DNA from: Alligator mississippiensis
Lineage: Eukaryota; Chordata; Crocodylia; Alligatoridae
Reading direction: 5' to 3'
Length of the DNA: 64,000 nucleotides
NCBI RefSeq assembly: GCF_030867095.1
Contig: NC_081836.1
Coordinates: 30,082,338 to 30,146,337, forward strand
The number at the start of each line of letters is the position of its first letter. The stretch's first letter is position 1. The notes beneath the pieces were generated by a model, which saw only the letters and a list, made by a program, of their open reading frames with translations, ran no database searches and had not been told where the DNA came from. Of the stretch, positions 8,050-60,260 are shown in pieces. The position numbers and the translations under genes are program-made.

Positions 8050-8100
8050 CTGAGCCCATCGCGTCCGCCGTAACCACAGCAACGGCCCTGCTCTCGCCGG
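8050..8100 (-). other. CFAP70: Candidate CFAP70 first exon (mostly 5' UTR), upper limit approximate
   Basis: Inside the CpG island the minus strand has a good donor, GGCTCAG|GTAGGA, at 8050/8049. It follows an ATG at 8059-8057. Spliced to the second AG of the next exon, this ATG reads in frame (MGSD then MAAPVG); spliced to the first AG it opens an 18-codon frame ending past the main ATG. The transcription start is not visible, so the upper bound is a guess. Confidence 0.45.
8070..8083 (+). promoter_or_regulatory. RFX X-box motif in CFAP70 promoter
   Basis: GTAACCACAGCAAC fits the X-box consensus GTNRCC-N2-RGYAAC at every defined position. RFX factors drive many cilium genes through this site close to the start, which fits CFAP70. 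The motif lies 11 bp upstream of the candidate first-exon ATG. Confidence 0.65.
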
Positions 8101-13485: not shown

Positions 13486-22593
<9,108 letters not shown>

Positions 22594-28335: not shown

Positions 28336-28341
28336 TTTATT
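28336..28341 (-). terminator. Proximal poly(A) signal of PITPNC1-like gene
   Basis: AATAAA on the minus strand, 144 nt past the stop codon. It is the first such hexamer downstream and would give a short 3' UTR. Confidence 0.5.
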
Positions 28342-28484: not shown

Positions 28485-28750
28485 TTACTCAGCATTGGCG
28501 CGCTCCCGCAGGGCTGGCAGCGTCAGTGTTTCCGGAGCAGATTTCTTCCGGGGCCTGTCCTTGGGAGCGCTGAGGAAGTCTGGGGGATCATCACTCAGTG
28601 GTGTAGAAGGGGCACTGGCTGGGGCGCTGTGAGTGACCGGAGCTTGCCCCACCTCACTTATGGAAATGGAGGGTGTGACCACACCAATGATCTCGTTGGT
28701 CGCTTCCTGGGTTTCTCTCTCATACTTGCGCACCTCCTCCATTGTCATTC
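28485..28750 (-). CDS. PITPNC1-like exon 9, regulatory tail and stop
   Basis: Acceptor TTTGCCAG|GAATGA. It encodes the last helix (MTMEEVRKYERETQEATN), then a Ser/Pro-rich disordered tail with SAPSTPLSDDPPDFLS and RPRKKSAPETLTLP (basophilic S298). The C-terminus, PALRERANAE, is shorter than and unlike that of PITPNC1. TAA at 28487-28485. Confidence 0.93.
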
Positions 28751-31700
28751 CTGGCAAAGGAAAACAGAAGCAGAGTTCACAGGCTGGCTTGGGAGGACCC
28801 ACCCGTCTGCTTCTGCTTGGATGTGTTAAACAGAGGAACACGGGGGTGAGGCTGCTCTGGGAGTGGCTCTCACACACACTGGAGAGACATCCTGAGCACA
28901 GCCACAAGGGAGGTTTGGGGGCTTGGAGTGCATGAGACAAAGCAGGCAAGTGAAGGGTGAGCAAGCCTCCCCAAGTGTGTCAGCAATGTGGGGTGGCCAG
29001 GCCCTTTGTGTTCATGTGCTGGGCACAAGCCAGCTTCTACATCTACTACCTGAGCCACGAGGGGTGGCCTCCTCCCTATAGTCCTCACCTTGCTTCTAGC
29101 TTACCTATCCCAGTAGGCACTGTCCATGGAGGAGGATGCTGCTGCTGTGGCTGAAGGCAATTCTCACCAGCATCTCTCACCTAATCCATGAAGATGTTTA
29201 CACAGTGCCCCTTACTGCTGTCTCTAAAGCAGCCTGCAGGTCCAGGGGGTGGAAATCTGCAGTCCTATCAGGCTAAAGGCCTAAGCCACAGATGAGATGT
29301 TGAGCTTGAAACCACAGCCTGAGGAGACTTACTCACTGGAGGGGGATGGAGGATCTTTTTCAGTATCAGAAACAGTAGTTTTCCTTAGGTTTCTAATTTT
29401 TCTGTAGTGTGGACCACATAACAGAAGTTGCCTTATTGCTACCTCCCCTCTCACATACAATTCCACAGATCATCTCTGCTCCAACTGGGGATGCAGCAAT
29501 GTCCCTGTGGCAACTAAAGCTGTTCCTTCCATGGAAAAATAAGGTCAGAGAAGGAATGAGGTATTCTTTGAATACATGATCCAGCAGCTGGGAGTGAGGA
29601 AGAGTAATCAGCATCATGTGATGCACAGGCTCTGTACAGAACAGGTGCTGCTGGTGGCTGATGGGCTGCAGGCTGGGCAGAAGCTCCAGCTCACCTCTGT
29701 TGGGTTCCTTTCCCCAGAGGGCATTATTCTGTGGAGCTGAGGCTTACTGAAGTACCTATTGAGCTGTCTCTACTGAGGTTCCCATGACCACCTTGGCCAA
29801 GAGCAAAGATACATCAGGAAGAATAGAACAAACCAATTCCTTAGCTTCTACTGCTGTCCTGCTGCCAGGATGTGCGCATCACCCTGGTATCTGAGTGCCT
29901 TGCTCCATGTAAACACTGCATGACTGGGCAAAGCTCTACTGCCCTGGGAGAGTCTGTCCTAGTTTTATGTAGGTTTTTCTCCCTTGTAACTTGGTTAGCT
30001 ATTGTGTCATCTTCTTCACAACAGGCCTGAGAAGACTGAACTGCTTCAGAAGACCCAGGAAATATGCTTTAGCTGTTGTGTGGAGTCAAAGATGACTTTA
30101 AAGGCCAAGTTTCCCCATGGGAATAAATTTTCCAAGGAACTTGTAACAGCTCTTATCTCTAATAGGCTGAACAGGGCAGCAGAGGCCACCAAGCCAGAGC
30201 TTTCAGATCTGGTTCTGAGCTCTGTGTGGGTTGATTTAATTTACTGTCCTGTGCGTATCTTCCAGGCTGCCCAGTGTCAGGGCTGTGGCTGAGATCAGCA
30301 TGAGAAGGAAGGAGACTTCCCTAAGCTTTGACGCTGAGGTTCTACAGGGAACTCACCCTTCAGTGACTTACTTCTACACATACCTGGGTGTGAAGCTCTA
30401 AGGGATGATGCAGTGCATGAAGCAGAGGGCAATAGGATTGGGTCAACAGCAGAGAAACCACCTCAAGGAGGCTGTTGAACACAGCAGTAGGCAGATGGCC
30501 TTGATTTCTGCCTCTTAGAGAGGCCAGGTCAAGAAAGAAGTATGGGGCCTGCCTATGTGCTATCTGCCTGCTGCCAGCTCCCTGAGGTCATCAGTACCCA
30601 GGCTTCCACTGTGGGCTGTTGAACTCCCTTGCAAAGGTTGTATACTGGAACGGCAAGGATACTGCAGGGCAGGAATGAGGTGTAGCACTGGGGAGGGATC
30701 AGGAGTGGAATGCAGGGGGTGCAGGCAGGAGGGAGGTGCATTGGCAAAGCTATGTGCAGGGAGATGGTGGGAGCAGAGGGAGGCGCACTGGCAGAGCCAT
30801 GGGGCCCAGGCTGCTGAAGCAGGCAGAGTGCACAGAAGGCTTAAGGTACATCTGCACATCTGCCCTGGGGAAGCAGACCTGGCATCTGCTCTGTCCATAC
30901 AGCTGTTGAACTCCTGCAAGTTCTGGCTCAATACCACCCCCCAGTGCAAGCCATTCTGATGGGAACTGCTCCAGGTGAAATATGTGGTCCATTTGCCATG
31001 GGATCGCTGAGAGCTCCCAGGATCTCCCCTACTCATGTGTAAATGTTTCTGGCTGCATGGTCTCTATCCTGTTTTAACAAGCAGCTGCACTGTGGTCTCA
31101 CAGCTATGGACCAGGTTCATCCATCCCCAGCACAATCACCTCTCGTTGTGGGGGATGATGAGCTCCCTGCAGAGTCAAGAAGAAGCCCTCACATGAGAAC
31201 ACTATGGCAGTGCTACCAAAGAGGAGGCAGATACTCTGATGTCCCACCACAGCCCCCACTGCAGAAAAGCCTGACCACTGCCCTGCATCAGAGAGGATGA
31301 GCGCCACCCTCTGGTTCAGCTCCTTTGCCCACAGTCCAGTGCATGCTCCAGTTCTGATCCAGACCATGCACCCTCCCTGGGCTGAGGCCACCCCCACCAG
31401 CCAGACCCCAGTGTAAAGAATGGCTGCCCCAGAGTGCACTCTGTGACCGGGGAGGGGCAGGGGTGAACTATGAGGCTGCATGGAGAAAGAGAAAACCAAA
31501 TGGAAGGTACATACAAAGGGAGGTCCTGGGCGAGCTGGGCAGGCAGGAAGCTAAGGGTCCTGGCTTCCGAACTTTTGATTTGTGGCCACTTGCATCTGAG
31601 TCTCGAAGACACGGACCTCTTCCAGGGACATGTCTGTAACATGCAGAGAGCCTCTCACTGCTCGGCCAGCAGGGCAACACTAGGTGAATGCCCCACACAT

Positions 31701-34700: not shown

Positions 34701-37700
34701 CAAATTCAGCCCTGGAGTGAATGCCAGCCTTCGATGGGGAACCTGATCCCTGGTTGGGCTGGACATATTCACAATGCCTTGAGCCTAGGAGGCAGCAGCC
34801 CTACTGGAGCCCTTATGCACTGCCTGACTCCCAGGGTGCATGAGGAGTGCCAGGGCCCCTGGCATGGGCAGTTCTGTTCCACATGCCTTCCCTACACATG
34901 AAGAATGGTCACCCTGGCACTCTGCCCTTACTAGACAGCACCAATCCCAGAGCAAAAGGCAGTGCAGTGTGGGCATGGGATACCCTCCTGCTCCTCCAGC
35001 CTGGGGGGAAGTGTGTCTGTTTGGTGAAGGGAAGGGGGTGACTCTTTAACCCCTGGAGCCCATGTGCCAGACTGTCCCTATAACTGGGAAAGAGAGGGTC
35101 CATTGAAGTACATCCAGGTGTTGTAACCAGCACAGACCCACAGCAAGGACCTGGGAACGGGGAAGCAGGGGCATGTTCCCTAGTAGAGCCTGGGGGGGAG
35201 GAGGGGCATCTCCCACCATCCTGGTGCTTAGCTTTGTTGCCCCCCCACAAGAGGAGCAGTACTGCAGGCCACTTACCGCACCACTCGTCTACCCAGGCGA
35301 ATGCCTGTCGGTGTCCTATCAACAGGATGTCCCGGATCACCTGCAAGCCGCAGCACAGTTAGAGCCCTGGCATGCAGCAGAGTGCTCTCCCCTCCCCTCC
35401 CTTTGGCTCTACATGCACCCTCTAGGTAGAATGGGCAGTTATGGAGCTGATTGGGGCCCTCCCAAGAGATGGCATCTGCATGCCATATCCTAGTGCCCAG
35501 CATATGCCTTTTCTCAGAGCGCAGGGCTGGAGAGGCATCTGTGGGGTGGGAACACTGAGTTAGACCTACCCTCAATGAAGAACATGGCACAAGCCCAGGC
35601 CACATACTTTTCTTCAGTTCCCACTTACCAGGAGCCAGCAGGGCCTTCCACCTCTCCAGAAGGTCCCCACCTAAGCCTGGTGGGAGTCTTTACAGGCAGC
35701 CCTGCCCGACACCCCAGCTCCCAGGGAAATGGAGGTGCTCTACTCCAAAGCGTCCTGGATTTTCATAGATTTCATAGACATTAGGGCTGCAAGGGACCTT
35801 GAAGATCATCAAGTCCAGCCCCCTGCCCCAGGGGCAGGAAGTCAGCTAGGGTCAAAAGATCCCAGCAAGATAGACATCCAATCATTTCTTGAATGAGTCC
35901 AGAGTAGGTGCCTGCACCACTTCTGGAGGGAGTCTATTCCAGGCCTTGGGGGCTCAGACAGTAAAGAAGTTTTTCCTTATGTCCAGCCTAAAATGGTCAT
36001 GGAGGAGTTTATGACCGTTAGTCCTTGTTATCCCTTGGGGCGCTCTGGTGAACAGATGCTCCCCCAGATCCTGATGCACACCCCTTACATACTTATAGGC
36101 AGCCACCAGGTCACCCGAGCCTGTGCTTTTCCAGGCTGAAGAGTCCCATGGCTCTCAGCCTTTCATCATAAGACCTATTCTCTTGCCCTCTGATCATGTG
36201 CGTGGCTCTCCTCTGGACTCTCTCAAACTTCTCGACATCCTTCTTGAATTGTGGAGCCCAGAATTGGATGCAGTACTCCAGCTGCGGCCTCACCAAGGCT
36301 GAGTACAGCAGGAGGATGACATCCTGAGATCTACCTGAGAAGCATCTATGGATGCAAGCCATAGTTTTGTTTGCTTTACCAGCTGTGACATCGCATTGGT
36401 GGCTCACGTTCATCTTGTGGTCAATCATGACCCCCAAGTCTCTTTCAGCCATGGTGCTAGCAAGCGTAGCACTGCCAAGCCTATGAGCATGCTGCAGGTT
36501 TTTTTTCCACAAGGTGGAGTACCAAGGTGGATGAAGAGATTCTACACTGTCCCCAAGCACAGGGCTTAGAAGGGGCTTTCAATAGGCCAAACTACACAGC
36601 CTGGAGGAGTCTGTAAAGCTTGACTGGGCCTGGGTGACTGACTGGGTTATTTATACAGGGCTTTCTAGCTTAGAACACTTCAGAAAGTGGTTTACAGGCT
36701 CTACTGAATACGTGTCACATTGCACTGCTGAAATGCAGCCACAGCAAGGGTGGAACAGGGCAGCTATTTAGCACACAGACATTACTGTAACCACATGAAC
36801 TGCACAGGGTTTTTTAAAGGCAGGGGAAGCATCATTGGCCTGAGCTAGAATTTGGTCCAGACAATGGATCAAATGCCAGCATCCAATGCCAGGTGTGTAC
36901 CTGTGACTGGGGGCTCTGTTGTATGTCCCACCATAGGGGCTATCGCTCTTCGTATTCAATAAGAAATTAAAACCAAAATGCATCCAGCATAAAATGCTGT
37001 TGCCATGTACTTTCCTGTTATGCCATAAATAAGCAGTGGGCATGCACAACTTCGCATCTGTAGCATCATGCCATGGGTAACTGCAAGAGCAGGACAGTGC
37101 TCCCATCCCCCTGCTCCAGAAGGAGCTAAAGGAGGATCTCCGTGCAGCAGTAGCAGTATGGGGGCTATGACCTGCGATGGGACAGCTCTGATCGCCTACA
37201 GTAGATGGCAGTGGCACGCATGTCACTTGAGGTGCGGGCAGACATAACACTTGAACCATTCCAAGAATGTCACCAATTGGAAACTGGCTCACATTTGTCC
37301 TTGGTTAAAGCCAAGGACAAATGTCCAGTCACATGTCCAGTCCTAACAGTTCTAAGCAGAGTGGTCACTTCTGAAGTACTGCAGTGCTGTGGACCCACCA
37401 TCTGGGAGTAGTAGTGAGTATCCAGTCCAGCTGAAGTTTTCTGCTCTCTCTTCTCACTGGGCGCAGCTACACAAGACGCTACATTGCCATAGCAATGAGC
37501 TATGGTGACGTAACTTGTCGCTACAGTGCTGTAATGTTGATGGGCACTAACCATGCTGCTGCTGCTGCTGCTACTGCACAGTAGCAATGAGCTACTGTGC
37601 AGTAGGGTCAGAAACAACTGATGTGCTGCCAGGACTGTGTAGTACCAACTGTACAGTGGGGCACACGTGTAGACATGCCCACTGAGTTTAAAACCCATTC

Positions 37701-40700
37701 CTGCACTTTACCGAGCTCTGTGTACAATGGGGCTCTGACTAGGAGTGCCTAGGTGTGCCAGTAGGATTGGTATGGGGGCTGCCTGGACTCCTGCCTGGGA
37801 GCTCCAGGGGCTGTGTAAGGACTCCCCTGCCACCAATGGAAGAAAACTGACCAGCTCTTTAAAAGCAGCAGAAAGCTGCCCTGAGCCTCCAGTCAGGGGA
37901 CCTGCAGTCAAGTGCAAGTAACACAGGACATGGCAGTAGAGTTCTGGCTGTGTACCAGAGTTGCCAGTTGCCTGGAGAAGATTGGGCTGGCAGGGAGGGG
38001 TGTGAGCAGTGGGGCGGTGTGGGATGCCTGGAGGACTGGCCAGACATTAGTCATGAAAAGCCTGGTGTCTGCAGATAACACTGAACTGGTTCATGGAAAA
38101 CTGCTTCAAAACAGTACTTGTTAATCCAAGTAGGTTTTTGAGATGGTTCAGGAGGTTTAAAATGTTCTGAACTGGCTCATATGTCTGGGCAATTGCAGTA
38201 CAAATCTCATTTAAACCATCCAACCATAGAAAAGTAGGGCTGGAAAGGACCTCAGGAGGTCGTCTAGTTCAACCCTCTGCTCAAACAGGACCATCCCCAA
38301 CTAGATAATCCCAGCCAGGGCTTTTTCAAACAGGGCCTTAAAAACTTCCAAGGATGGAGATTCCACCACCTCATTGGGTAAACTGTTCCAGTGTTTTACT
38401 ACCCTCCAAGTGAGAAAGTTTTTCCTAATATCCAACCTAAAGCTCCCTTGCTGCAAAACTTGACCATTGCTCCTTGTTCCATCGTCTGTCACCACTGAGA
38501 AGTCTAGCTCCAGTCCAAGTGTTATATCTGTCTGCGCTCTCTCTCACACACTCTCTCTCTAACCAACTCATGACAATAGAGTAACAAACCACTTCATTTC
38601 AGTAGCCACAGTCAGCAAGACGCATTGGAAGTTACTGCCTGCTCGGGTCTCTGGTCCTGACTAAGGGCTGGCATGTTCCCAGCTAGCTGTAGGGCTCTGG
38701 GGTGTTTCCTGCAGCTTGTAAATGGGCATGTGGGCTTCCCCCACATGTTGAGTCCCTGGCTGTCATGGGGGCAGCTCCTTCCTAGAAGCATGTATTATGG
38801 TTACCAGGGGAACCAGGAGGTTTCCTCTCCTTGGAGGGGCAGAGGTGCCCCCTCACCTTGTGAACAAATTGCTCCACTCGTGTCTGCAGCCCCCACACCT
38901 CAAACTTGACGGTGACCAGTTTGTAGGAGCACATGACGGGCTTGGTGTGCTCCCGCCAGCCTTCTCGCAAGGGCCCGCGGCCTGTCTTCACTGAACTGAA
39001 GTATCGTGGGTCCTACACGGAGAAAGAGAAAGGAGCAGGCAGGTCAGTGTGCCAAGGACAAGGAAAGAGGACCAGCCATGCCGTTGACCAAGCCCCAATC
39101 CAGACTTCACCTCCCACTGCTAACAGCTGTGCCAGGAATGGCACAGCACACTGATATGAGACAAACCTGGCAGTGGGGTGGGTGGATTTGGGTGCATGAG
39201 CGGGTGGGAGGAAGACAGGCCAAGAGTGTGCAGGCAGGTGTGGGGCTGGGTGGCTGTGACTAGGCAGATGGGCAGGGGCAGGCGCACAGACATGTATGGG
39301 CACTGGCAGACAGTTGGTGTCAGGTTGGCCATCTTGGGTGGGCACAGGCAGATGCGTGGGTCCCAGGGACAGGGTCAACGGGATTGTGTTTTCTCCTGTC
39401 AGCAACATTACCTCCAGGGACCGGTAGTAGCGCTCGGGAATCTCATCGAAGGCAATATCCAGGAATGAAACTTCATGGTCTCCCAGGATTTTATCGCTGT
39501 GGAAGATCTGCAGAGGGAAGGGCCCAATGAGACCCACAGCCAGTCACCAACATCCTCCCCAGGCCAGCCAATGCCAGTGGGGAAATGGCTTTGTATGCCC
39601 GGCCAAGGGCCTCCCTGCACTGGAACAGCAGCATCTGTAAACTGCAACAAGTCCATGAAAAGATCCATTTACTGCTGCTGCCACCCGAGCAAGGAACCTG
39701 GGCTGAGTGCATACAGGCATCCCCTCTGGCATCGGATGGGGGTCAGTGGACTGTGGCCTAGGTTGCTTGCCTGGGCAAGGGGGTTGCAGGCTCAGGAGAT
39801 ATCGTGCCCCTCCCAGCTAGCCTGGATCAACTCCCACCTGGTGGCAAGGGGCCATAGCTCCCCTCAGGTCACTGGTGGCGGGGATGGTGCCCATGCAACA
39901 GGGAAAGAACAGGAGGCTAATCTCTCTCCACAGCACCACCCTCAGCAGGATGGGCAGAGGCAGCAGGTGGGGATGGGGGAGGGAGTGGCCTGTGCCAAGG
40001 GAATGCAAGCGAGAGGCAAGGAGCGGGTGGGGGGGACTTACATTCTCGCTGTCTCCGCAGTTATCCTCATACTTGGTCTCTATGTAAATGGAGAACTTAG
40101 GCAGGAAAGAGCACTGCAGAAAGAGCACAGGCCGTCAGCTCTGGCCCAGCCTGGCTGCCCCACTAAAGACCAAGGACTTGGTGGGCCCGGAGCAGCATCC
40201 AGTCCTGACTGGCTCCCCAGCCCCAGACACTGAAGTATCTCATTGATCAGGTCCAGACTTAGCAGTTTCCCCCACTACCCAGCTCTGTCAGCCTGTCTCT
40301 GCCCTGGAGGATGCTGACAAGCAAGGAGTCCACAGGCACATGTGGGAAGGGGAACCACAGCACAAAGTAATCCCTTATGCCTCCCTTTTCCTTGGGGGCC
40401 CCACCTGAGAGTAAAAGCTTCCACACAGCATTTGGTGTGGAAGGAGTCAGCCATGCTCTTCATGATGGAGAGGACCCATGGGGGCCTGTGTTCAGGACTG
40501 GGTGGGTGGTGTGGCAAGGTGGGCTGTGGGCAGTTAATTATTTTCACTGAAGAAGGGATAAGCTGTTAGCAGGGGCTGAGTCCAGCTGTGAGCAGGGGCC
40601 ACAAGCCTCTGAGCCTCTTCAGGCATCACAGCACCAGGGGCAGCAGTGCCTGTCATCACCTTCCCCTTAATGCCCTTCTGCAGCCCATGCCTAGGGCTGT

Positions 40701-43700
40701 GGCAGGGCCAGAATGGGGTTCCATTGCCAGTCTTGCCCAGTCTGGTTCCAGCTGTGGAGCAGGCTGGGAGGGTGATGAATGGAGAGCTGAACAACTGCCT
40801 GACGCAGCCAGTCCTTACCGTGTACTCTGAGCCGGCAGCACAGCGAATCCAGGAAGCGCCAGGGTGGGTGAGGGCGGCAGGGAGAAAGGGGGAAAGGATG
40901 ATGAGTCAGAGGAACCATTATTGCATCTACACAGCCAAGCGCTCCTGAGTGGTTCCAATCAGCTGGACAATGAGGTGGCTCCATTGCCATGGCCAGCCGA
41001 GGAGGAGGGACACACGAGCACTGCCAGCCCTGCTCACCTCAATGGGGCCAGGGCCAGCACGAGTTTGGCTGTCAGGGTGAGTTGTGCCAAGGGAGCTGGC
41101 TCCTAGCTCGATGCTTAGGACTCCGCAGCATGCAGATGCTGGTGGGATGAGCTGACTGAGGAACAGGCCTTAAGAGAGGAGCTTGGCTCTGCCTGGGCAG
41201 GACAGGGTCAACTGAGGTGTGGAGCTTGGGCAAGTTGCCTGCCAGACACTGAGCCCACTTGTTGGGCTTTGGGCTCTGCCTCAGGGCTGTGGCTCTTTTG
41301 GGCCCTTGGGGGCCTTTTGCTGTGCCTTGTGCCCTCCTCCCAGGTCCTGTGCTGGGGGAGTCTGTGTGGGTGGCAGTGAAGTGCAGCTTGTCATGTGCCA
41401 GGGCCCAGTTCACACATGGGGTGGGGGTCACCAGAAAAGTTAGACTGACCAGGCAGTGTTGGTGACACCCCCGGAGTGCCTGCTTCCTGGGGACAGGGCC
41501 CACAAAGAGAATCACTTTGTCTTCATGCCCATCAGGGTGAGATCCCTGAGACTGCTCCTGTCTTCCCCTCTGCTGGCATCTTACTCCCTCCCTGGAACAA
41601 CCTGATGGAGAGGCAGGGCTACAGGAGATCTGGGCTCCAAGCAGTGCCTGGTTAGGGAAGGGGAGAAGACTGGTGCTCCCAGCCCAGCACAAGGTTCAGA
41701 GGCCACATGGGAGTGCAGCTGGAGCTGGGCAGAAGGAGGGCGCCTTACCTGTAATGGTGTAGGGATAGTAGTTCCAGGCCTTCTCCGTGATGTAGAATAT
41801 GCGGGGAGTCACAGCGCGGGCCCAGCTGGGCAGTTTGCTGGGGAGGTGCAGAATAAGGGGCTCCAGTCACCACCCACTGGATTTCTGTCTTGTGTACCTC
41901 AACACTGACCAGTCACCCTTAGGACCAACTTCTCCACAGCGCAGGTACGAAGCAGGTGGACCCCTCCTTCAGCCTGCCTCAGCCCTGAGTGGGAGTGGCT
42001 GCTTCTGGCAGGAGGGAGAAGAGTGCCCTCCAGGGCCAAAGCCAAGCTTGAGACACAGTGCTACCACCCCTGCATCAGGGCCTGGGCATCAGCTCCCTAG
42101 CCCTGCAGTCCCCAAATTGCCAGCGTCCTTCCAGCTGCCTGCATGCCCAGGATATACCTGTACCCCCAGCATCACTCCCTGAGTGCCACACCCTCCCTGG
42201 TCCTCCACTGCTGTGCTCTCCCAACCAGTCTCCATCTCCATGCCCCACAAGGCACCCAGACCTACACCCTTCCCCTTGCTCATCCCCCACTTGCAGCCCT
42301 CACACTCTAGCAACCCTAAGAGCTGATCCTGCTCCCACAGCAGCCATGGGAAGCTGTGCTCTTGGTTAAGAAAAGCAAGTTAAGAACCACAGGCTGGAAC
42401 AGGTACTGCTTCTGCTCCCAGCCCCTCAGATCCCCCCCGCTGTCATGGTAAGGAGAGGACACTGGCATATGGATGCACTGAAGGGCACAGACCCTCTGCA
42501 CCAAGGAAGGAGCATCAGTGAAAGCTACCTGCCAGCAGGCAGGCAGCAGCTGGGCTCACTCCAGCCCACTCCACAGGGGCTGGAAATGAGCTGCCAGCTC
42601 TTGCTTTCCTCTGGCCGTGACAGCTGTTCCTCACCCAATCGGAGGGGAGCTCGGGGGGAGGGGAGAGACAAGGGGATTTTTGATTAATCTTCAGCCTCTA
42701 TAAATAGCATCCCCGAGAGGAGAATCGTGAGTGCCTCGGCTAAAAATATCCTGGCTGGCGCTGGCAGTCCCCCTGCTGAGTGCACAGCCCAGTAACGTGC
42801 TGCAGTGAGATGGAGCCATGCTGCTAGGGCTGCCTCGCTGATATGCACTGTCCATCACACCTTTCCACCTGCTGGGCACTGGGGGTGGGAATACAGAACA
42901 GGCCTCAGTTCTCCCCTCTGAGAGCCATGCATGTGAATAAGCAATCATCAAGGAGAGAATGGGACAGCTGGGCTGCAGCAGGGGAAAGGGAGGTGCAGGA
43001 CAGGCAGCAGCCAAGGGATCAAGGGGCAGCAAGGGGACAGGTAGTGAAACAGATGCAAAGGCCACTCCTGCATTAGGTCTGTCCTCAGCAAGGGGCAACC
43101 GGTTACTGCACAGCACATGGACAGAGGAACACATACCCCAGTGTAAATGACCTCAGCTTTGCATACAGGAAGGGGTCAGGAATGGACAGACTGGCAGTTC
43201 TCCTGGGGTAGGTCACACAGCAGGCAACCTTTAAAGACTTTCCAGTAGGTAGGGGGAGAACAAGTCATAGTCTTTTCACCTTTATTCCTGATTCCCCTGG
43301 GATGGATGCAGGCAGGAGCCAAACAAACCTGTGCTGCATGCACCAGTAGTGTTTCACCCCTGATTCTTTCAGGTCTAATTCTCCACTGGACTAAGCAGCT
43401 GCTCCAGTTTGAGGCTTAGATTATCTGCCCACTACTCTTCCACTTGATGCAACCCCTGTCTGCCCAGGGCCATGGTGAAGCACTCTGTGGACAGAGCCCC
43501 TTTCAGCCCTAGTGATGATGGGGCTGAAGCTTTGAATAGTCCTGGCCTCAGGCTGGCTCGATCTACACCACAAGGAACCTGTCTACATTGCAGCTAGCAC
43601 TGGGGATGTGAGAGTTCCCTGACTCAGCTGTAAGATTCCCCCTAGAAACAAAAGGGGACAAAACCGTGGGCCCCCTTAGGAGCTGACAGCCACAGAATCA

Positions 43701-46700
43701 TCTCATGGCTCACTGCTGGAGGCTATTCTGAGCATTCAGAACTGAACCCGAGGTCAGAAGGAGCTCCATACACAGACAGCTGGCAGTAGCAGGCTCTGGC
43801 TTGGGGAAGCCAGACGCAATCTCAGTGTATTTTCTTTTTTCTCTGCAGCCTTGGGATGGGCTTTATGTCTCTCCTCCAAAGACTCCTGTCAATGGACGAG
43901 GAAGTGAAATGTACTGGACAAGGGAGTGAAATGTACTCTGTCCAAGTTTGCAGATGACACAAAGCTATGGGGAGAAGTCTGAACTCCTCAACGAGTTCTT
44001 TGCCTCAGTGTTCCTAAGCGAGGGGCAGGACAAGTCTCTCACTGGGGTTGTAGAGAGGCAGCAGCAAGGCGCCAGACTTCCATGCGTAGACCCTGAGATG
44101 GTGCAGAGTCACTTGGAAGAACTGGATGCCTTTAAGTCCGCAGGCCCGGATGAGCTCCATCCGAGGGTGCTGAAGGCACTGGCTGACGTCATTGCAGAGC
44201 CACTGGCGGGAATATTTGAACGCTCGTGGCGCACGGGCCAAGTCCCGGAGGACTGGAAAAGGGCCAATGTGGTCCCCATTTTCAAGAAGGGGAGGAAGGA
44301 GGACCCGGGCAACTATAGGCCAGTCAGTCTCACCTCCATCCTTGGCAAAGTCTTTGAAAAAATTATCAAGGCTCACATTTGTGAGAGCCCGGCAGGACAA
44401 ATTATGCTGAGGGGAAACCAGCACGGGTTCGTGGCAGGCAGATCGTGCCTGACCAATCTAGTCTCTTTTTATGACCAGGTTATGAAACGCCTGGACACAG
44501 GAGGAGGGGTGGATGTCGTATACTTAGACTTCAGGAAGGCCTTTGATACGGTATCCCACCCCATACTGGTGAACAAGTTAAGAGGCTGTGACTTGGATGA
44601 CTACACAGTCCGGTGGGTGGCGAATTGGCTGGAGGGTCGCACCCAGAGAGTCGTGGTAGATGGGTCGGTTTCGACCTGGAAGGGTGTGGGCAGTGGGGTC
44701 CCGCAGGGTTCGGTCCTTGGACCGATACTCTTTAATGTCTTCATTAGTGACTTGGACGAGGGAGTGAAATGTACTCTGTTCAAGTTTGCAGATGACACAA
44801 AGCTATGGGGAGAAGTGGACACGCCGGAGGGCAGGGAACAGCTGCAAGCAGACCTGGACAGGTGGAACAAGTGGGCAGAAAACAACAGAATGCAATTCAA
44901 CAAGGAGAAATGCAAAGTGCTGCACCTAGGGAGGAAAAATGTCCAGCACACCTACAGCCTAGGGAATGACCTGCTGGGTAGCACAGAAGTGGAAAGGGAT
45001 CTTGGAGTCCTAGTGGACTCCAAGATGAACATGAGTCGGCAGTGTGACGAAGCCATCAAAAAAGCCAATGGCACTTTATCGTGCATCAGCAGATGCATGA
45101 CGAATAGGTCCAAGGAGGTGATACTTCCCCTCTATCAGGCACTGGTCAGACCGCAGTTGGAGTACTGCGTGCAATTTTGGGCGCCGCACTTCAAGAAGGA
45201 TGTGGATAACCTGGAGAGGGTCCAGAGAAGGGCCACTCGTATGGTTAAGGGCCTGCAGACCAAGCCCTACGACGAGAGACTAGAGAAACTGGACCTTTTC
45301 AGCCTCCGCAAGAGAAGGTTGAGAGACGACCTTGTGGATGCCTATAAGTTCATCACGGGGGCACAGAAGGGAATTGGTGAGTATTTATTCACCAAGGCGC
45401 CCCCGGGGGTTACAAGAAATAATGGCCACAAGCTAGCAGAGAGCAGATTTAGACTGGACATTAGGAAGAACTTCTTCACAGTTCGAGTGGCCAAGGTCTG
45501 GAACGGGCTCCCAAGGGAGGTGGTGCTCTCCCCTACCCTGGGGGTCTTCAAGAGGAGGTTAGATGAGTATCTAGCTGGGGTCATCTAGACCCAGCACTCT
45601 TTCCTGCTTATGCAGGGGGTCGAACTCGATGATCTATTGAGGTCCCTTCTGACCCTAACAACTATGAATCTATGAATGTTTCCAAAGCCACTTGGAGATG
45701 TGCTGAGTCTGAGGCGAGCCTCAAACTCATCATCAAACCCACTTTCAGGCTGGTCAGTGAGTGCCCATGCGTTTGGGCATCTCTCACTTCTTTCTATGGG
45801 AGCTGCAAGTGCTCAGCACCTTTGGAATTGACCACTTATCTCAGTGCTGAAGAGCACCAGCCTGCAAATGTCTATAGGGCATCCCACTGGCTTCAGTAGG
45901 GCTCCAGGTAGGCCTGAGTGTCTGACTGGGGACCCCCTGGCAAAATGAGTTTCGGTCTAGCAGTGGATCTAGGTTCAAATATCAGCTCCCCAGCTCAGAA
46001 AGCCTGGGCATATCTGACCAGTCTAAACAGCAAGGCTGGGCAGAGGCAGGAAGGGAAAGCTGGGACTGGGAGTCGGCCTGAGTGGAGCTGGTCAGCTATA
46101 CCTACCCATTGGGGAAGGGGCACCTGAAAGTGAAAGCCCCCAGATGCAGAAAGAAAACTGACTGCCTTAGCTTCACAACCCCTGAAGAAAGACAGGCAAA
46201 GAGGGAAGGAGTTGATTCAGGTGTGGCAGCTGAAATAAACTTTTCCAATTCTTTCCATTCTAATCCCAGGCACTAATAAATTGGGGAGGAGATATTTCAC
46301 ATGTAAGTTGGGGCTCATACAATGCTGATACTGTTGCCTTAGATAAGCAGCAGCAGAGCAATTTCCTTCTGGGTCTTTATTCCAGCCCCCAGTGAGAGCA
46401 AGAAGGAGCAGATCCTAAGTTTATCTAACTGCAAACACATATTAGCCCTCCAGGGCAATTGGCAAGCTCAGCCTAGCCCCATGGAGGGGTAGTTAATGGC
46501 TGGGCTCTCGGATACAAATCATTCCGCTGCCAGCCACAGCAGTCCCGGTTCCACCAGGGGCAGCAGCAAGCTCATCAGCAAGTTGGTTTCATTTTTTATC
46601 TTGGAGCAGCCCCCAGAGTCACTTGCTATGAAAGCTCCTGGGGATGGAGCGAAGCAGCACGCAGCCTGCAGGGAGACTCGTCACCAAGCCATGAGGATGC

Positions 46701-47908: not shown

Positions 47909-47944
<36 letters not shown>

Positions 47945-50900
47945 AGTGCTTAATCAATAAACCTGGCATCTTGCCTTATCACTCATAAGGTCTCGCTCGT
48001 GATTTGAGCAATTGGCAATTTGTGTAACACTAAGGCAGGGAGGCAGTGGGATGAAAGGATGCAAGGGGCAGTGGGGAGACAGGGAGCGGGGCCAGTTCAG
48101 CAGGAATCTAAGGAGCTCTTGGTACTAATAATAAGCCAGAGCAAGAGTAGCCAATGTGTCACATTCTTCCCCCTCCCCACCATGTTCCCCAGGGGCCTGA
48201 AGGCTGCCTCTCAAATGCAAAAGACTCCATCCAGTCACTTTTGGCAAGGGGTGAGTCAGAGAGAGAAGTTTGGATGATGCCATGGGGAGAGCGCAGGCCT
48301 TTGTTTCCAAGGGGTTTCAAAGAGAAGCTAACAGACAGAACCAGCAACAAGGTAATTGGGAAGCCCAAAACAGAGGAGAGATGATAGAAACTCTGAGAGT
48401 AAAGGGAGTGGCAGGCAGGGGACTGACAGTGGCTGGTTCAGATCCCACCCAAGCACAGGCAGCTCATGCTACCCCTGGGCCCTATAAACTGGTGAGCCCT
48501 AGACAGACCACCTTTATCTTGGTATAAAAAGGTAGTGGGCAGATAACACAAGACCCTAAGCCAGAGTAATTCTGCCCAATGTGCTGGAGAATCACCCCTG
48601 AAAGAATCCAAGAGAAACTCCGTGGTGTAGGTTCTACTGGTTTAGGTGCTGTCTGTCCATGTCCATCCCCAGGGTTGCTCTTCACTTTAACACCCCACCC
48701 CCCACACTCTCCCCGCCGCTATTAACTTTTCCCCTGCCACCTACTGGCAAGACACTGTAATAGCTTTCTCCTGGGTGAGATTCCCCCCCCCCCCAAAAGA
48801 GCTGCAGGTCTATTCATTACATGTTTACCATATTTCTAGTTTAAAAAAAAAAGGACACATGTGTAGGGGGGATAATATGATTGTGGGGGGCCAGTGATAT
48901 GCCCATGTCCTGCCCCTCAATCCCAACCTGCAGCCCCCTGCCCCTCCCAGCCCTGCTACCCATGCAACTTCTTGCTGCCCCTGAAGAACTGCCACCCCGC
49001 CCCCCGACTTACCTGCCTGCAGCTTCCAGCGCATGCCAGACGCATCTGATGCCCCTGCCTCCAATCTCCCTCTCCCCCTCCCCCACCCCCAAGCAGCTCC
49101 TTGCTGGGGCTAGCCAGGAAAAAACTTTGATGCTGAGCAGAGGCAGACCAAAATCCTGGACATTTGTTGATATTTAAAAAAAAAACGCCCAGACAGAGAT
49201 GGCAGGACCCAAAAAGAGGACAAGCCCAGGAAAACCCTGACATATGGTAACCCTACTAGTACAAGCCAATAGTGCGTGTCTGTTAGTTTGTCTAGGTCTT
49301 TACGTGTAGTGGAAAGTGTCCACATCTCCAGCTCTACCATCCTGCCTAGCTCCAACTGAAAGAGGCTTAGGAGCAAGGCCAAAGACTATGTGGGGTTCCA
49401 GAGACTGAAATACCTTCCTTCTTTTTGAAGATGGGTCTCCACACCAAGGGGAAGCACGTTGGGGGGGGGGGGGGGGGCACTGTACCATCTCCCTGCTCAG
49501 ACAGAGCACTCAGTTACTGCTTGTATCACTGCAGTGCCTGGGAAGCCTAAACAAGGGCCAAGACAGTCCAAAGGGCTGTCACATAGGCAAGGGATGCCCA
49601 GGCAGGGAACTTCTCACTTAGTGATGTGGAGATGTTCTAAAGAAAGGGTTAGCCCCCAAGTGCAGTGGTAGAGCACATGCTCTACAGGACATGAGCATAC
49701 CCTGGCCGATTCAGACTCTCACCTGGAAAGGTGCACACGCTTCTCAGTGAACTGCCCAGGGCCATGCACAGGGTCTTCGTGAGGCTCATTCTTCACCACC
49801 TCCACGCCCTCTCCTTTCTCGCTCTCCTGGTGGCTGTGCTTACTGATGGTGTACAGCTGGCCCACACGATACTGCAATGGCATGAGACATATTAGAGATG
49901 CTGTGCTGCTGGAGGGTCCAGTGAGGCACTAGGCCAAGCAAGAAGCCGTGGATCATATCTGCTCCCTCGCTTGCCTATGTGTGACTGTCTTTAGCTGCCT
50001 AGGGAAGAGCATGCAGCCCAGCTTAGGCTTCGGTTCCCCAAAGGATGGGCTGTCCACCAGCACCCTGGGAACTGCCTCACAGCCCTTGGTACTGGGACGC
50101 TTGGCACAACCTTGCTATCCAGACAATGCTTTCCCTTCCTTCATTTACTCCCAGGACCTCCAAACAGTTCCCCCATAACTTCCATGCTGACACGCATTGT
50201 GGACTTTCCACAGACACCTCTTCTCTCTCCCCATGATTCAGGACCTCCTGGATCTACATCACTGCCCATCTCTGAACTCCCAGAAAATTACTATTACATG
50301 CAACGTGGTGACGAAAAAAGAACAGCTCCCCAGTCACCTTTCATCCTGCACAGCCAGCCTTGGCCAGACTACTTTATGCTCCTTTTCCTCTGGCCGGAAG
50401 CCTGGAAACTTGTCCCAGGACAGCCACCCTAGCGCTAGCCCAGGAGACCTTCCCCTCCTGCCTGCAACAGGGCTCCTGAGCAGCCCTACATTAGACAGGC
50501 CTGTTTGTTCTGCCATGTCCCGCTGCCAGCTGCAAACCGGCTCTCCCAGTCCTTGAGCTCTTCCTGCTGGGCTGGGCTCCCTCTCAGACTAGCTGCTGGT
50601 CAGACTATTTGTCTGCCTTGGGCTGCTGTTTGGCTGACATTCTCCTCCCCTCCCCATGCCTAACCCCTCTGGGCTCCTTGGTACTACTCCTCCACCTTGG
50701 CTCCTGCTCACAGCTCCTCCCAGTGATAAGCACCAGGGAATGTCATTAATTTGCTGTTTGCTCTCTGGGCAGCTCATTAAGGAGGCCATTCAACCTAACT
50801 GTGCCCCAGCTGGCCTTCTCCACACAGCAGTGCTTGCTGAGGGATCCAGCCCTACAGAGGGAGGGGGACACTAGCTGGGGCTGGGGTGTCAAGTCCTGGT

Positions 50901-56900: not shown

Positions 56901-59900
56901 TTTCCCCATAGGTGAACGCTGGATGCTGCTCCCTCACACAGGCGCTCCCTGGACCAGGCAGGAGGTTTTATGCAGTTGTGCTGCAGCGCCTTGAGCTCTG
57001 GGGCTGGCGCAGGGCAGTGGCCCCTGCAGGGGGAGCGGGGCAGGCCGCAACCCAGAGTGCTGTGGTGCTTGCAGCCTCAGCATACCTCCGCTTGGTTCCT
57101 CTGAAGACATGTCGAGAAGGAAGTTTCCATGACGCATGCTGCCACGGTAACGAAGGCCTTTCACAGGCTGCAGGAAGCTGCCTGACTGACACTTCCCGTG
57201 CAGGGGAGGCCTCGCCTGAAGCTGACCCCAGGCCCTGGAGCCAAAGCAGTCACAGCCCCCAAGCTCAGAGCTGGCCCATCAGCCTGCAAACATTCACCTC
57301 CTAGCCACACGGCCCCTGCCAACCGCAAGCTGCAGCACTGCACTGCACCCCTGCTCTCCACAGTGCTGGTCTGCTAGGCAAGGGTCTGAGGGAGGGGTCT
57401 TGAGCCTGCTGAAAGACAGAGGAGGCTTCTGAGAAGCTGCTCCCCATCTGCTCTGCCCTGTCCCACAGGCTGCCTGGCTAGCTGGGAACCTAGACACTGC
57501 CCAAGGGATGTGGCACTCCCTGAAGTGTGTGCATCTGCTGCTCCTGTCACTGCCATCACTGCTCTCAACACCCATCCCACCATGCTTCATTTCCCAGCAA
57601 ACCCCTCTTCCACCACACCCTTCTGCTCTATGCAACATCACTTGCAATCCAGCGAGATTCAAGGAGGTACTGGTCTAAGGTGGAACAAGCCACTCTCTCC
57701 TCCAGCACACTGATCTCAACCTGCCACTGGCACCACGTCTCCTTCCTTTCCCCTACAATGAATTTGGCCTTATTAAGAATATCTGTGCCAAGCTATGACA
57801 TACCACTGCATGGTCACCAGTGGGACTACGAGCAGATCTGACATGCTCATTTCCTGTGTTGGAAAGTAGCAGCACCACACTGCACCTGGTGCCAGGAAAG
57901 CTGTGCGCCACAGTTCGGTGGCCTAAGGCCAAGAGGAGAACCAGAGTGCTGGCAATCCTGCATTCACCTCTAACATCTTTCACCCAGAAGAATCCCAAAA
58001 TGTTTTGCAGCAGGTACAGGGACCACTCCCACTAACATGCAGTTGGCTCTGAATGGGAATGCAGAAGCTATTTAACAGCCTACTACAACCCTACATGAGT
58101 TTAAGACAGGAAGTGAAGAGTAGCACAATGTATCCAACAGAAACTGGGGGGGGGGTGCAGGGTGCGTGCAGATCTAGCTTGGGAAAGTGCAATGACCCTG
58201 AGCTGGAGCCCAGCCAGGACACAAGCAGCGCACCCCTTTCAAGTGCGCCAGGTTCTTTGACGGCCACGTGTTATCACCTTGGGGGGAACGTTCTTTCCAA
58301 ACAGAAGAGCCACATCCTGCTGCCCCTCACAACAGCAGTTGGAGCTGCAGGCATCACTGCAGATTCATAATGGTGTAAAGCAGAGGGGACTCGGGCCCAG
58401 CCCTACTGTGACCTTGCGCCCTGCATCTCCACCTGCTCTGGTCTTGACACTACTCACTGCAGCCTCTGGGCAGCATGTTGGCTCTGGCACAGATCCGACT
58501 CACAGGGAGGGAACCCTTTTTCCAAATCACTCCCCATGACATTCTGGGATTTCCCATCCCAAACTTGTGCCAGCACAGCCCCACTTAGCTCAATGAGCTA
58601 TACACCCCTGGCAGCCTGCCTTGAGGAATTCTGCCTGCAGGTGCTGAACCTTCTACCTTGCAGTGCCTGTTCCCCAGTTACTCACTAGTCCAGTTCCTTC
58701 ACTGCACAGACACTAACGGCTCAGGCCTTGCAACAGGCAGAGAGAGAGCACTAAAGGCTTCCACAGTTGAGCTGTCAGCATCAGTTTGCCCTCGTGCAGG
58801 TCCCATTTCCAACCAGTCACTGTTCCACCTGCATCCCCATTGCTCAGCACCCTGGGGCTATTGCTACCATGAAAAGGTCTGGTCAGGAGGGCAGCCAGTG
58901 CTTTGGAGCTGGGCTGTAATGCAATGAGGTAGCTCCAAACCCCACACTTGGAGAGGCCCACTTAACACCCCAGGCATGTCTGCTGAGTCCAGGACCCTCT
59001 GTTTGGGGTTCTGCTCTGAATAAGGCTCAGCAGTCTTGCACCCACTTCATAACTGGGGAAACTGAGGCAGCTGCTCAAGGCAACCCCACAAGTCAAAGGC
59101 AATGCTGAGATCCAAGCCCAGATTGTTTCCCTTCCAGCCTTGGGCATACCAGACCCTGAGGTCTCTCCTGTAGCACAGGTCCACTCCAGCAGGGCAGGGG
59201 AAGGAGCCAAGAGCTCAATAAGCTCAGGAGTTCTGCCTGTCAGCCACAGGCCCACATGCCTGGGTTGAAAATGGGGAGTCTAAGGCCTGGCCCCAAGCTC
59301 AGAGCCCAGGAGGGTAAGATAAATACCCTGCAAGAGAAAGCACAGTGTAGAGAGCCCATGGGTCCTAGTGGGGCTGAGCACCATCCTGCTCCAGGGCTGG
59401 GGGTGCCAGGGTAGTGATTAGAGAGCACAGACAGCTCCGTGCCCTGGGACCTGGCATGAATGGCAGGGTACTCCTCACAGGGACACACAGCTTGGCCATG
59501 GGGCTGCATAGCTGCTGGCTTCTTTCAGTTTGCTCCGCAGAAGCTGCAAGCCCTGCGCTCGCTCCTCTCATGTGGGTGCAGTAACGAGCTGCTATACTAG
59601 CTGCTCGTGGGCTGCCTGCATGCCAAGCTCCCTCTGCCCCTCATCAGGGTGCCTGGGCTGGGCGCTAAGAAATTGCCTCTCTCTGGAACCACTTCTCACC
59701 AGCTGCTTGGGCTGGGAGGAGAGGGAGCAGGTGGGCAGCCCCCTCCCTCTCTGCTGCTGTGTTTGAACAGCCTTGGAGGGAGCCTGTCACAGCATGGGGA
59801 GAGTGAGAGGCACTAGGAGGAAAGACAGGGCAGTGGCTGCCCCAGGTCCACAGTCATGTGGAAGATTAGCCTTCCTTGCCTGGCCTCATCCTGGGCCACC

Positions 59901-60260
59901 TCAAGGAGGGGATTTGCTCCACCTAGCAGCCCTGTCACATGCTGCAGGGATGGAGCTTTGCTCCCTCTCAGCAGCATCCTCAGCTCTGCCTTGCTGTGCT
60001 CTGGGCTGGGCTGGGTCTGTCAGGCTGCCACAGGTGATTAGCACTGAGTTCCCACGAGCTGCAGCCTCCCCCCTGCCCCATGAACTCGGGTAAGGCAGGG
60101 CAGAGCAGTCCAGTCCCTCTGGCTGGTGTCTCTGGGGACTGAATGGGGTGTAGTACTGGCTAATCCATCAGCCGTACAAGGTCCAACCTGCACTCCCCAC
60201 CCAGGCACTTACCTCCTCAGTGGTGAGTGGCATGCAGATGCGATACTCCTTGATCAGCAT
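28485..60260 (-). CDS. PITPNC1-like phosphatidylinositol transfer protein, complete, nine exons
   Basis: Class II soluble PITP (RdgB-beta type), moving phosphatidylinositol/phosphatidic acid between membranes. Exons in order: 60260-60213, 49871-49723, 41837-41749, 40826-40819, 40113-40042, 39507-39412, 39012-38857, 35340-35277, 28750-28485; 948 nt, 315 residues, all GT..AG with matching phases. Anchors: MLIKEYRICMPLT, KLPSWARAV, EKAWNYYPYTITEYTCSFLP, CSYKLVTVKFEVWGLQ, RDILLIGHRQAFAWVDEW. T58 and K60 fall where PITP-alpha has headgroup-binding T59 and K61. The tail keeps RPRKKSAPETLTLP, a 14-3-3-type phosphosite region in PITPNC1, then ends early (PALRERANAE; human PITPNC1 about 332). By eye it is roughly three-quarters identical to human PITPNC1, too divergent for a reptile orthologue, and it sits beside MSS51, so I call a paralogue. 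Confidence 0.93.
32192..32213 (+). repeat. Short interrupted CA repeat
   Basis: CA-rich run with one CCA interruption in PITP intron 8. Confidence 0.85.
34639..34713 (+). repeat. 16-bp direct repeat pair
   Basis: GGCCAAATTCAGCCCT occurs exactly at 34639-34654 and 34698-34713. The motif is like the end of palindromic MITEs common in reptiles; probably two half-copies. Confidence 0.5.
35277..35340 (-). CDS. PITPNC1-like exon 8
   Basis: 64 nt, acceptor GCTTGCAG|GTGATC, donor TGCG|GTAAGT. It encodes VIRDILLIGHRQAFAWVDEW, nearly identical to PITPNC1, followed by cysteine where PITPNC1 has tyrosine. Confidence 0.94.
35762..36512 (-). mobile_element. CR1 LINE 3' end in PITP intron
   Basis: The minus strand encodes AERDLGVMIDHKMNVSHQ and [20 protein letters not shown], followed by the CR1 3' UTR and a tail near 35762 (TTCATAGATTTCATAGAC on plus). 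5'-truncated. The RT C-terminal stretch is open for about 120 codons. Confidence 0.88.
37459..37680. mobile_element. Palindromic MITE, same family (222 bp)
   Basis: Starts GGGCGCAGCTACACAAGACG and ends, inverted, GGGCATGTCTACACGTGTGC. ACT flanks both sides, consistent with a 3-bp target duplication as in PIF/Harbinger elements. It shares CCATAGCAATGAGCTATGGT with the 10.9-kb element. It lies in an intron of the PITP gene. Confidence 0.6.
38225..38515 (-). mobile_element. CR1 LINE 3'-end fragment
   Basis: The plus strand shows ACCATAGAAAAGTAGGGCTG and GGAAAGGACCTCAGGAGG, the reverse complement of a CR1 tail, continuing into the end of the RT frame (FRLDIRKNFLTWRVVKHWNS). Located in the intron before PITP exon 8. 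Confidence 0.85.
38857..39012 (-). CDS. PITPNC1-like exon 7, core PITP signature
   Basis: 156 nt (52 codons), acceptor CGTGTAG|GACCCA, donor CACAAG|GTGAGG. It encodes KTGRGPLREGW and CSYKLVTVKFEVWGLQ, then TRVEQFVHK. These are the most conserved PITP-family segments and the basis of family assignment. Confidence 0.96.
39412..39507 (-). CDS. PITPNC1-like exon 6
   Basis: 96 nt, acceptor CTCTGCAG|ATCTTC, donor GGAG|GTAATG. It encodes IFHSDKILGDHEVSFLDIA then FDEIPERYY. The first half is clearly diverged from PITPNC1 (IFDNEAKDVEREVCFIDIA). Confidence 0.92.
40042..40113 (-). CDS. PITPNC1-like exon 5
   Basis: 72 nt (24 codons), acceptor TTTCTGCAG|TGCTCT, donor GAAT|GTAAGT, phase 0. It encodes CSFLPKFSIYIETKYEDN, matching PITPNC1, then a diverged CGDSEN where PITPNC1 has KGSNDT. 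Confidence 0.93.
40819..40826 (-). CDS. PITPNC1-like exon 4, 8-nt microexon
   Basis: The minus strand reads CTCAG|AGTACACG|GTAAGG. The 8 nt complete a glutamate codon and add TYR-THR, giving TIT-EYT-CSF exactly as in PITPNC1. Without it the exons on either side join out of frame. Acceptor and donor are both good. Confidence 0.9.
41749..41837 (-). CDS. PITPNC1-like exon 3
   Basis: 89 nt, acceptor CTCCCCAG|CAAACT, donor TACAG|GTAAGG. It encodes KLPSWARAVTPRIFYITEK and AWNYYPYTIT. It ends one base into a glutamate codon that only the microexon completes. Confidence 0.95.
43893..45678 (+). mobile_element. CR1 LINE with long open RT frame and rearranged 5' end
   Basis: A 546-codon frame, 43948-45588, covers the linker end and the whole reverse-transcriptase domain: NYRPVSLTSILGKVFEKI, YLDFRKAFDTVSH, GVPQGSVLGPILFN, the catalytic FADD at residues 280-283, and [20 protein letters not shown]. 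It ends in the CR1 3' UTR with tail ACTATGAATCTATGAATG. The endonuclease is missing. The first 85 bp are a duplicated internal piece (see findings), so the first ten residues of the frame are not CR1-colinear. An open frame this long suggests one of the younger CR1 copies here. Confidence 0.92.
47386..48029 (+). mobile_element. Possible solo LTR (644 bp)
   Basis: Ends TGTTATACAAAT and ATTTGTGTAACA form an inverted pair of LTR type (TG..CA). Inside, in LTR order, are a TATA box (GTTATAAAAGATGG near 47715) and AATAAA near 47957 followed by a short U5-like stretch. No second copy or internal region is seen. No direct target repeat is found; instead TA flanks both ends, so a TA-inserting DNA element is an alternative. 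Coding: none. Broken or solo fossil of unresolved family. Confidence 0.5.
47911..47942 (+). repeat. (GT)16 microsatellite
   Basis: Uninterrupted GT dinucleotide run inside the LTR-like element, between its TATA box and poly(A) hexamer. Confidence 0.97.
48823..49254. repeat. Probable DNA-transposon-like repeat with inverted ends
   Basis: The left end TTACCATATTTCTAGTTT and the right end, inverted, TTACCATATGTCAGGGTTTT resemble each other, each followed by an A-rich stretch and GGACA or its like. The interior is C-rich. No target duplication was recognised. Family unknown to me. Confidence 0.4.
49461..49477 (+). repeat. G17 homopolymer
   Basis: Seventeen consecutive G in the intron just below PITP exon 2. 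Other G or C runs occur at 48784-48794 and 62879-62890. Confidence 0.9.
49652..49724 (+). repeat. tRNA-like remnant abutting PITP exon 2 donor
   Basis: GTGCAGTGGTAGAGCAC folds as a D arm and matches the alanine-tRNA A-box region; ATGCT..AGCAT pairs as an anticodon stem but with a 12-nt loop; GATTCAGACTC resembles a B box. No good acceptor stem. Either a decayed tRNA pseudogene or the head of a tRNA-derived SINE, not a working tRNA. Confidence 0.4.
49723..49871 (-). CDS. PITPNC1-like exon 2
   Basis: 149 nt, acceptor CATTGCAG|TATCGT, donor TCCAG|GTGAGA. It encodes YRVGQLYTISKHSHQES, GEGVEVVKNEP and GQFTEKRVHL, holding the T/K pair used for headgroup contact. A tRNA-like remnant abuts the donor. 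Confidence 0.95.
52871..53010 (+). repeat. MIR SINE remnant
   Basis: GTGACAGTGGATAAAGCATT, then a degraded box-B region, then GGGTCACCCTGGGCAAATCA and TGGCTCAGCTCCTCC follow the MIR tRNA head and core in order. Confidence 0.65.
54281..54448. repeat. Near-perfect inverted repeat, 70-bp arms
   Basis: Left arm 54281-54350 and right arm 54379-54448 are reverse complements with 4 mismatches in 70 and a 28-nt loop. Similarity stops sharply at both outer edges. No flanking target duplication seen. It lies in PITP intron 1. It resembles no repeat family I know. Confidence 0.95.
60213..60260 (-). CDS. PITPNC1-like exon 1, start codon
   Basis: The ATG at 60260 has Kozak context ACCACCATGC. It encodes MLIKEYRICMPLTTEE, the PITPNC1 N-terminus; donor GAG|GTAAGT. 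The following intron is about 10 kb. Confidence 0.93.

What the first reader, a model, noticed from the sequence alone, without database searches (positions are those of the whole stretch)
28485..60260. A PITPNC1 paralogue beside MSS51, absent from this place in human
Nine exons give an intact 315-residue class II PITP. By memory, human PITPNC1 is on 17q, while MSS51 is on 10q between ANXA7 and PPP3CB with no PITP gene. The protein is conserved in the lipid-binding core but diverged in the 116-135 loop and has a different, shorter C-terminus. This suggests an old duplicate kept in this lineage and lost or moved in mammals, with its own tail regulation.
Basis: partly seen in the sequence, partly recalled or inferred. 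Interest (0 to 1): 0.75.

Follow-up and report, generated by a model that had tools for sequence, protein, structure and literature searches.

The report
An ancient second PITPNC1 gene

Summary
Nine exons (minus strand, 60260-28485; GT-AG; one 8-nt microexon) encode an intact 315-residue PITP (PF02121, 1e-109). I add a missed alternative last exon (31633-31551), giving a 254-residue short form like PITPNC1-sp2. The same genome holds a canonical PITPNC1 on contig C8, near CACNG4-like and PRKCA-like genes. Core identity is 93.4% between C8 and recalled human PITPNC1, but 76.3% and 76.8% between the window protein and these two. A tree puts the window gene outside C8+human (89/87). So it is a true paralogue, older than the split from mammals. 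Best reading: a whole-genome-duplication copy of PITPNC1, kept here, lost in mammals, still a PI/PA-binding class IIB PITP. Zebrafish pitpnc1b is a published second gene; orthology is untested. Both 14-3-3 serines are kept.

The parts
60213..60260 (-). exon 1 (ATG at 60260; MLIKEYRICMPLTTEE)
   Evidence: gtaagt donor
49723..49871 (-). exon 2 (149 nt, holds the QFTEK head-group motif)
   Evidence: same length as C8 exon
41749..41837 (-). exon 3 (89 nt, TEKAWNYYPYTIT)
   Evidence: same length on C8
40819..40826 (-). exon 4, 8-nt microexon AGTACACG (EYT)
   Evidence: C8 has an 8-nt counterpart AATACACA
40042..40113 (-). exon 5 (72 nt)
39412..39507 (-). exon 6 (96 nt, least conserved core exon, 17 of 32 residues identical to recalled human)
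38857..39012 (-). exon 7 (156 nt, KFEVWGLQTRVE)
35277..35340 (-). exon 8 (64 nt)
   Evidence: in-phase AG acceptor; score 55 against exon 9, best of 500 shuffles 30; same order as the sp2-like then sp1-like exons on C8
28485..28750 (-). terminal exon of the long form, with serines aligned to both 14-3-3 sites (S273, S298) and stop 28487-28485
28336..28341 (-). AATAAA signal 3' of the long form
13702..22587 (+). MSS51, tail to tail with the PITP gene (span of exon matches)
   Evidence: PF20179, zf-MYND; recalled human MSS51 tblastn; only MSS51 locus found in the genome

Best explanation
The window holds an intact second class IIB phosphatidylinositol transfer protein gene, a paralogue of PITPNC1 that arose before this lineage split from mammals, most likely in the early-vertebrate genome duplications, and was kept here but lost in mammals. 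The protein folds as a PITP domain that takes one PI or PA molecule into its cavity and carries it between membranes. The long form has a disordered tail that phospho-dependent 14-3-3 binding would stabilise. A short form made by the alternative last exon lacks that tail. Shown here: gene model, intact frame, family membership, second locus, relative distances, conserved exon lengths and the alternative exon. Inferred: lipid activity, 14-3-3 binding, use of the alternative exon, origin by genome duplication, loss in mammals.
For: PF02121 1e-109; PITP-alpha/beta chains are the solved relatives. Two class IIB-like loci, C13 and C8, among 25 exon matches at six loci (the 23 PF02121 matches fall at the same six). 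C8-human (recalled) core 197/211 identical; window-C8 161/211; window-human 162/211. Tree (window,(C8,human)), class IIB 100/100, inner fork 89/87. Seven internal exons of equal length in both genes (149, 89, 8, 72, 96, 156, 64) and both with a short-form exon upstream of the long-form exon: a DNA copy, not a retrocopy. dN 0.17 against saturated synonymous sites: long purifying selection. C8 locus: PRKCA-like 5.475M, CACNG4-like 5.68-5.73M with a weaker CACNG match at 5.60M, PITPNC1 6.08-6.16M; PRKCB/CACNG3-like pair on C13:58.3-58.4M, the window's chromosome; PRKCG/CACNG8-like pair on C5. Septin flanking the window is nearest Septin-12, then Septin-9. Human single PITPNC1 on 17q with a 1q32.1 pseudogene, PI/PA binding, 14-3-3 serines: PMC8266687 passages.
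Against: The PRKCB- and CACNG3-like genes lie about 28 Mb from the window gene, so the genome-duplication origin rests on a shared chromosome, not close linkage. The inner fork of the tree (89/87) is below the tool's own mark for firm support and uses a recalled human sequence. No other vertebrate genome could be searched. No transcript evidence for either form. The short exon is nearer to the C8 long-form exon (14/27) than to the C8 short-form exon (11/27), which leaves room for a separate exon duplication; against the PITP-alpha helix 2 of 500 shuffles did as well.
Confidence: 0.85

Rival explanations
1. It is the PITPNC1 orthologue itself, moved and evolved fast in this lineage.
Against: A second locus on C8 is 93.4% identical to recalled human in the core, sits with CACNG4-like and PRKCA-like genes, and has the human-like short exon.
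Confidence: 0.02
2. It is a lineage-specific duplicate of PITPNC1, made by segmental copying after the split from mammals and then fast-evolving.
For: No other species could be searched; the tree fork that argues against it has only 89/87 support.
Against: The window protein is equally far from C8 and from recalled human (76.3% and 76.8%); synonymous sites between the two copies are saturated.
Confidence: 0.07
3. It is an old paralogue, but from a small-scale dispersed duplication in early vertebrates rather than whole-genome duplication.
For: The window gene is 28 Mb from the PRKCB/CACNG3-like pair; its neighbour MSS51 is elsewhere in human.
Against: It shares the chromosome with that pair and has a Septin-12-like neighbour whose relative SEPTIN9 is on 17q (recalled).
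Confidence: 0.3
4. It is the orthologue of zebrafish pitpnc1b, so the second zebrafish gene is not a fish replacement for splice forms but a general vertebrate gene lost in mammals (compatible with the best explanation).
For: Zebrafish pitpnc1b is only 57% identical to human sp1, while pitpnc1a is 81% identical (PMC6092267), as expected for an older paralogue.
Against: Pitpnc1b lacks the 14-3-3 serines and does not bind 14-3-3; the window protein keeps both serines. The tongue sole is reported to have one rdgB-beta only (PMC9006047, passages). Sequence and neighbours of pitpnc1b on zebrafish chromosome 16 were not available here.
Confidence: 0.5

Closest known systems
PITPNC1 (RdgB-beta), class IIB PITP; here the C8 gene of the same genome and human 17q24
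   Same: PITP domain, internal exon lengths including the 8-nt microexon, two alternative terminal exons in the same order, serines at the 14-3-3 sites; both genes of this genome end the long form earlier than recalled human
   Different: 23-24% of core residues, the 116-135 loop, last residues of the long tail, a shorter short-form tail (27 residues against 58 on C8 and 41 in recalled human), GC3 0.72 against 0.44, another chromosome
Zebrafish pitpnc1b (chromosome 16, 305 aa)
   Same: a second, more diverged class IIB gene beside a conserved PITPNC1
   Different: no 14-3-3 serines or binding; orthology untested
PITPNA and PITPNB (class I)
   Same: PITP domain and lipid-head residues; phmmer matches of 204-212 bits
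   Different: separate 100/100 clade; no tail
PITPNM1/2 (class IIA)
   Same: class II PITP domain
   Different: separate 99/98 clade; the window protein ends after a short tail

Membership tests
PITP family (PF02121) | PITP domain over the curated cut-off | tested here: met
   366.3 bits against 21.3
PITP family (PF02121) | inositol-binding residues T59, K61, E86, N90 | tested here: met
   T58, K60, E84, N88 by alignment with PITP-alpha; residue list from PMC6092267
class IIB (PITPNC1-type) | groups with PITPNC1 and not with classes I or IIA | tested here: met
   100/100 in a tree of seven sequences
class IIB (PITPNC1-type) | single PITP domain plus short disordered tail | tested here: met
   stop codon after an 88-residue last exon in the spliced model; disorder itself not tested
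class IIB (PITPNC1-type) | 14-3-3 sites (Ser274, Ser299 in human sp1) | tested here: inconclusive
   serines present as S273 and S298, second context identical, an arginine before the first lost; binding not testable
class IIB (PITPNC1-type) | binds PI and PA | not testable with these tools
   known for PITPNC1 from PMC8266687 and PMC7385082 passages
PITPNC1 orthologue | falls inside the PITPNC1 orthologue clade | tested here: not met
   outside C8+human, 89/87; C8 is the orthologue by identity and neighbours
early-vertebrate genome-duplication copy | lies in a duplicated block with other families | tested here: inconclusive
   same chromosome as the PRKCB/CACNG3-like pair, but 28 Mb apart; Septin-12-like neighbour
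orthologue of zebrafish pitpnc1b | tree and synteny | not tested
   no zebrafish sequence available; only published identities

The most novel reading that the evidence does not exclude
Jawed vertebrates began with two class IIB PITP genes, each already with a long (14-3-3) and a short alternative last exon. This lineage keeps both, zebrafish keeps the second as pitpnc1b, and mammals lost it, so the published view that fish use two genes instead of splice forms should be turned round.
Probability: 0.5. Interest if true: 0.5.

Novelty: new member of a known kind. Interest (0 to 1): 0.4.

Why it matters
PITPNC1 is studied in cancer spread, sleep and diabetes as the only class IIB PITP of mammals. 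A second conserved gene elsewhere among vertebrates means that work in other animals must tell two genes apart. It also gives a natural comparison, same domain and same splice design but a different loop and tail, for asking which parts set PI/PA choice and 14-3-3 control.

Tried and rejected
Scans of viral contigs and genome contigs for stray vertebrate relatives found none. Rfam at gathering scores found nothing in the window. Pfam on the immediate flanks (L021, L022, L023; 30 kb, six frames) gave only reverse transcriptase and one MARVEL gene; of the further 40 kb fetched (L045-L048) only one strand of L048 was given to Pfam, the rest was only screened by codon score and recalled proteins. 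PPP3CB and ANXA7 were not found in the window or the nearest flanks. Placing the gene in the PRKCG/CACNG8 block was my first idea from the MYADM-like neighbour; it was dropped because the PRKCG/CACNG8-like pair is on C5. STUB1, RHOT2 and ROGDI (recalled) gave no match in the fetched flanks, so the 16p13.3 assignment rests on WDR90 and the septin alone. Literature searches for a second PITPNC1 outside zebrafish, for MSS51 synteny and for the paralogon or septins showed none in the listings; these list only the top papers (20 of 2,910, 2 of 2, 20 of 91, 15 of 1,100, 30 of 61, 20 of 26, 10 of 12, 4 of 4, 0 of 0). Structure prediction was not tried: by its stated rule the protein must be read from the DNA letter for letter, which a spliced protein is not, and homology already settles the fold.

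Full report
What is in the window. On the minus strand nine exons, 60260-60213, 49871-49723, 41837-41749, 40826-40819, 40113-40042, 39507-39412, 39012-38857, 35340-35277 and 28750-28485, join in phase with GT-AG borders to an intact 315-residue protein. It matches Pfam PF02121 at 1e-109, and its solved relatives are PITP-alpha and PITP-beta (all 5 distinct PDB sequences at E up to 0.01). An AATAAA lies 144 bases beyond the stop.

A missed exon. Intron 8 holds a second terminal exon, 31633-31551, with an in-phase AG acceptor and its own stop, giving a 254-residue form that still matches PF02121. Scored against exon 9 its peptide reaches 55, while the best of 500 dinucleotide-preserving shuffles of the intron reached 30. 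Against the PITP-alpha helix it reaches 26, equalled or exceeded by 2 of 500. Human PITPNC1 has the same design, sp1 (332 aa, 14-3-3 sites) and sp2 (268 aa, none), as stated in passages of PMC8266687. The short exon is 14/27 identical to the C8 long-form exon, 12/27 to the window's own long-form exon and 11/27 to the C8 short-form exon, so its descent from an sp2-type exon is likely from its position but not proved by sequence.

The other PITPNC1. A family search gives 23 exon matches at six places, and a search with the window protein gives 25 at the same six; the tool warns that such counts are lower bounds. C8:6.077-6.163M is a canonical PITPNC1 with both terminal exons; its first exon was not found. 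Over the 211-residue core (exons 2-8), C8 and recalled human are 197/211 identical, window and C8 161/211, window and human 162/211. The seven internal exons have the same lengths in both genes. A tree of seven sequences gives class IIB 100/100 and C8+human 89/87, with the window gene outside. Synonymous sites between C8 and the window are saturated (pS 0.94) while dN is 0.17. The copy is therefore old, made at DNA level, and long under purifying selection. Published identities agree: zebrafish Pitpnc1a is 81% identical to human sp1 (PMC6092267, passages), whereas the window protein is 73.7%.

Where it lies. In this genome ANXA7 is at C6:25.069-25.089M and PPP3CB at C6:25.096-25.155M, their ends about 7.5 kb apart, with no MSS51 or PITP match between them. 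MSS51 is single-copy on C13 as far as the searches show (two weaker matches on C12 and C6:92.2M cover only query residues 122-157, the MYND region). On C13 the flanks hold, on the left, the WDR90 N-terminal exons with the CFA20 domain, and on the right an intronless MARVEL gene that I recognise as MYADM-like and a septin that scores 317 bits with Septin-12 and 307 with Septin-9. WDR90 is listed at human 16p13.3 in PMC4536608 (one passage); SEPTIN12 at 16p13.3 is recalled. So the human counterpart block is most likely 16p13.3, and it is MSS51 that has a different address in the two species. Whether that is a move or hidden paralogy of MSS51 is open.

Origin. C8 carries PRKCA-like, CACNG-like and PITPNC1 genes within 0.7 Mb; C13 carries a PRKCB/CACNG3-like pair at 58.3-58.4M; C5 a PRKCG/CACNG8-like pair; C4 CACNG2 (the names of the copies are given by identity and recalled human synteny). 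This is the pattern of a block duplicated in early vertebrates, and the window gene is on one of its chromosomes, but 28 Mb from the pair. I put whole-genome duplication at about two in three, against a small dispersed duplication of similar age.

Function. The four inositol-contacting residues are kept (T58, K60, E84, N88). PITPNC1 binds PI and PA, and its long tail binds 14-3-3 through Ser274 and Ser299 (PMC8266687; PMC7385082; passages). The window protein has serines at both aligned positions (S273, S298) and the identical RPRKKSAPETLTLP stretch, but has lost an arginine before the first site. The C8 long form also lacks the last residues of the recalled human tail. I therefore expect the same PI/PA carrier with largely the same tail control, a changed 116-135 loop (6 of 20 residues conserved), and a choice of a tail-less short form. 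None of this activity was tested.

Known or new. A second class IIB gene is in print for zebrafish (pitpnc1b, PMC6092267 and PMC8266687), where the review presents the two fish genes as standing in for splice forms; the tongue sole is reported with one rdgB-beta only (PMC9006047, passages). In the listings and passages that I saw there is no second gene described outside zebrafish. It may well be annotated automatically in databases as PITPNC1-like; I could not check. I file it as a new member of a known kind.

Noticed in passing
window 43930-45588 (+), inside intron 2 of the PITP gene: A 552-residue open reading frame of what looks like a CR1-type retrotransposon with an unbroken reverse-transcriptase domain (PF00078, 4.8e-32), antisense to the gene; the open frame suggests a fairly young insertion.
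   Followed up: partly
window 13702-22587 (+) and G000:C6:25.069-25.155M: Only one MSS51 locus was found, on C13, while ANXA7 and PPP3CB are neighbours on C6 without it. Human MSS51 at 10q22 is therefore either moved or a hidden paralogue.
   Followed up: partly
window about 7001-9000: The only 1-kb bins of the window with CpG observed/expected above 0.5 (0.57 and 0.76), with no Pfam match in the four of six frames scanned. The PITP start at 60260 has no such bin.
   Followed up: no
L022:5781-6713 (-), C13 about 30.162M: Intronless MYADM-like gene (two MARVEL stretches) to the right of the window; the name is recalled.
   Followed up: partly
L009-L017, C8:6.077-6.163M: The ordinary PITPNC1 of this genome ends its long form early relative to recalled human (EKKTL stop), has a GC splice donor after exon 2, and a longer short-form tail.
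   Followed up: partly
L048 about 9373-9453 (-): Weak TPR match (below cut-off) near WDR90; not STUB1 by recalled sequence.
   Followed up: no
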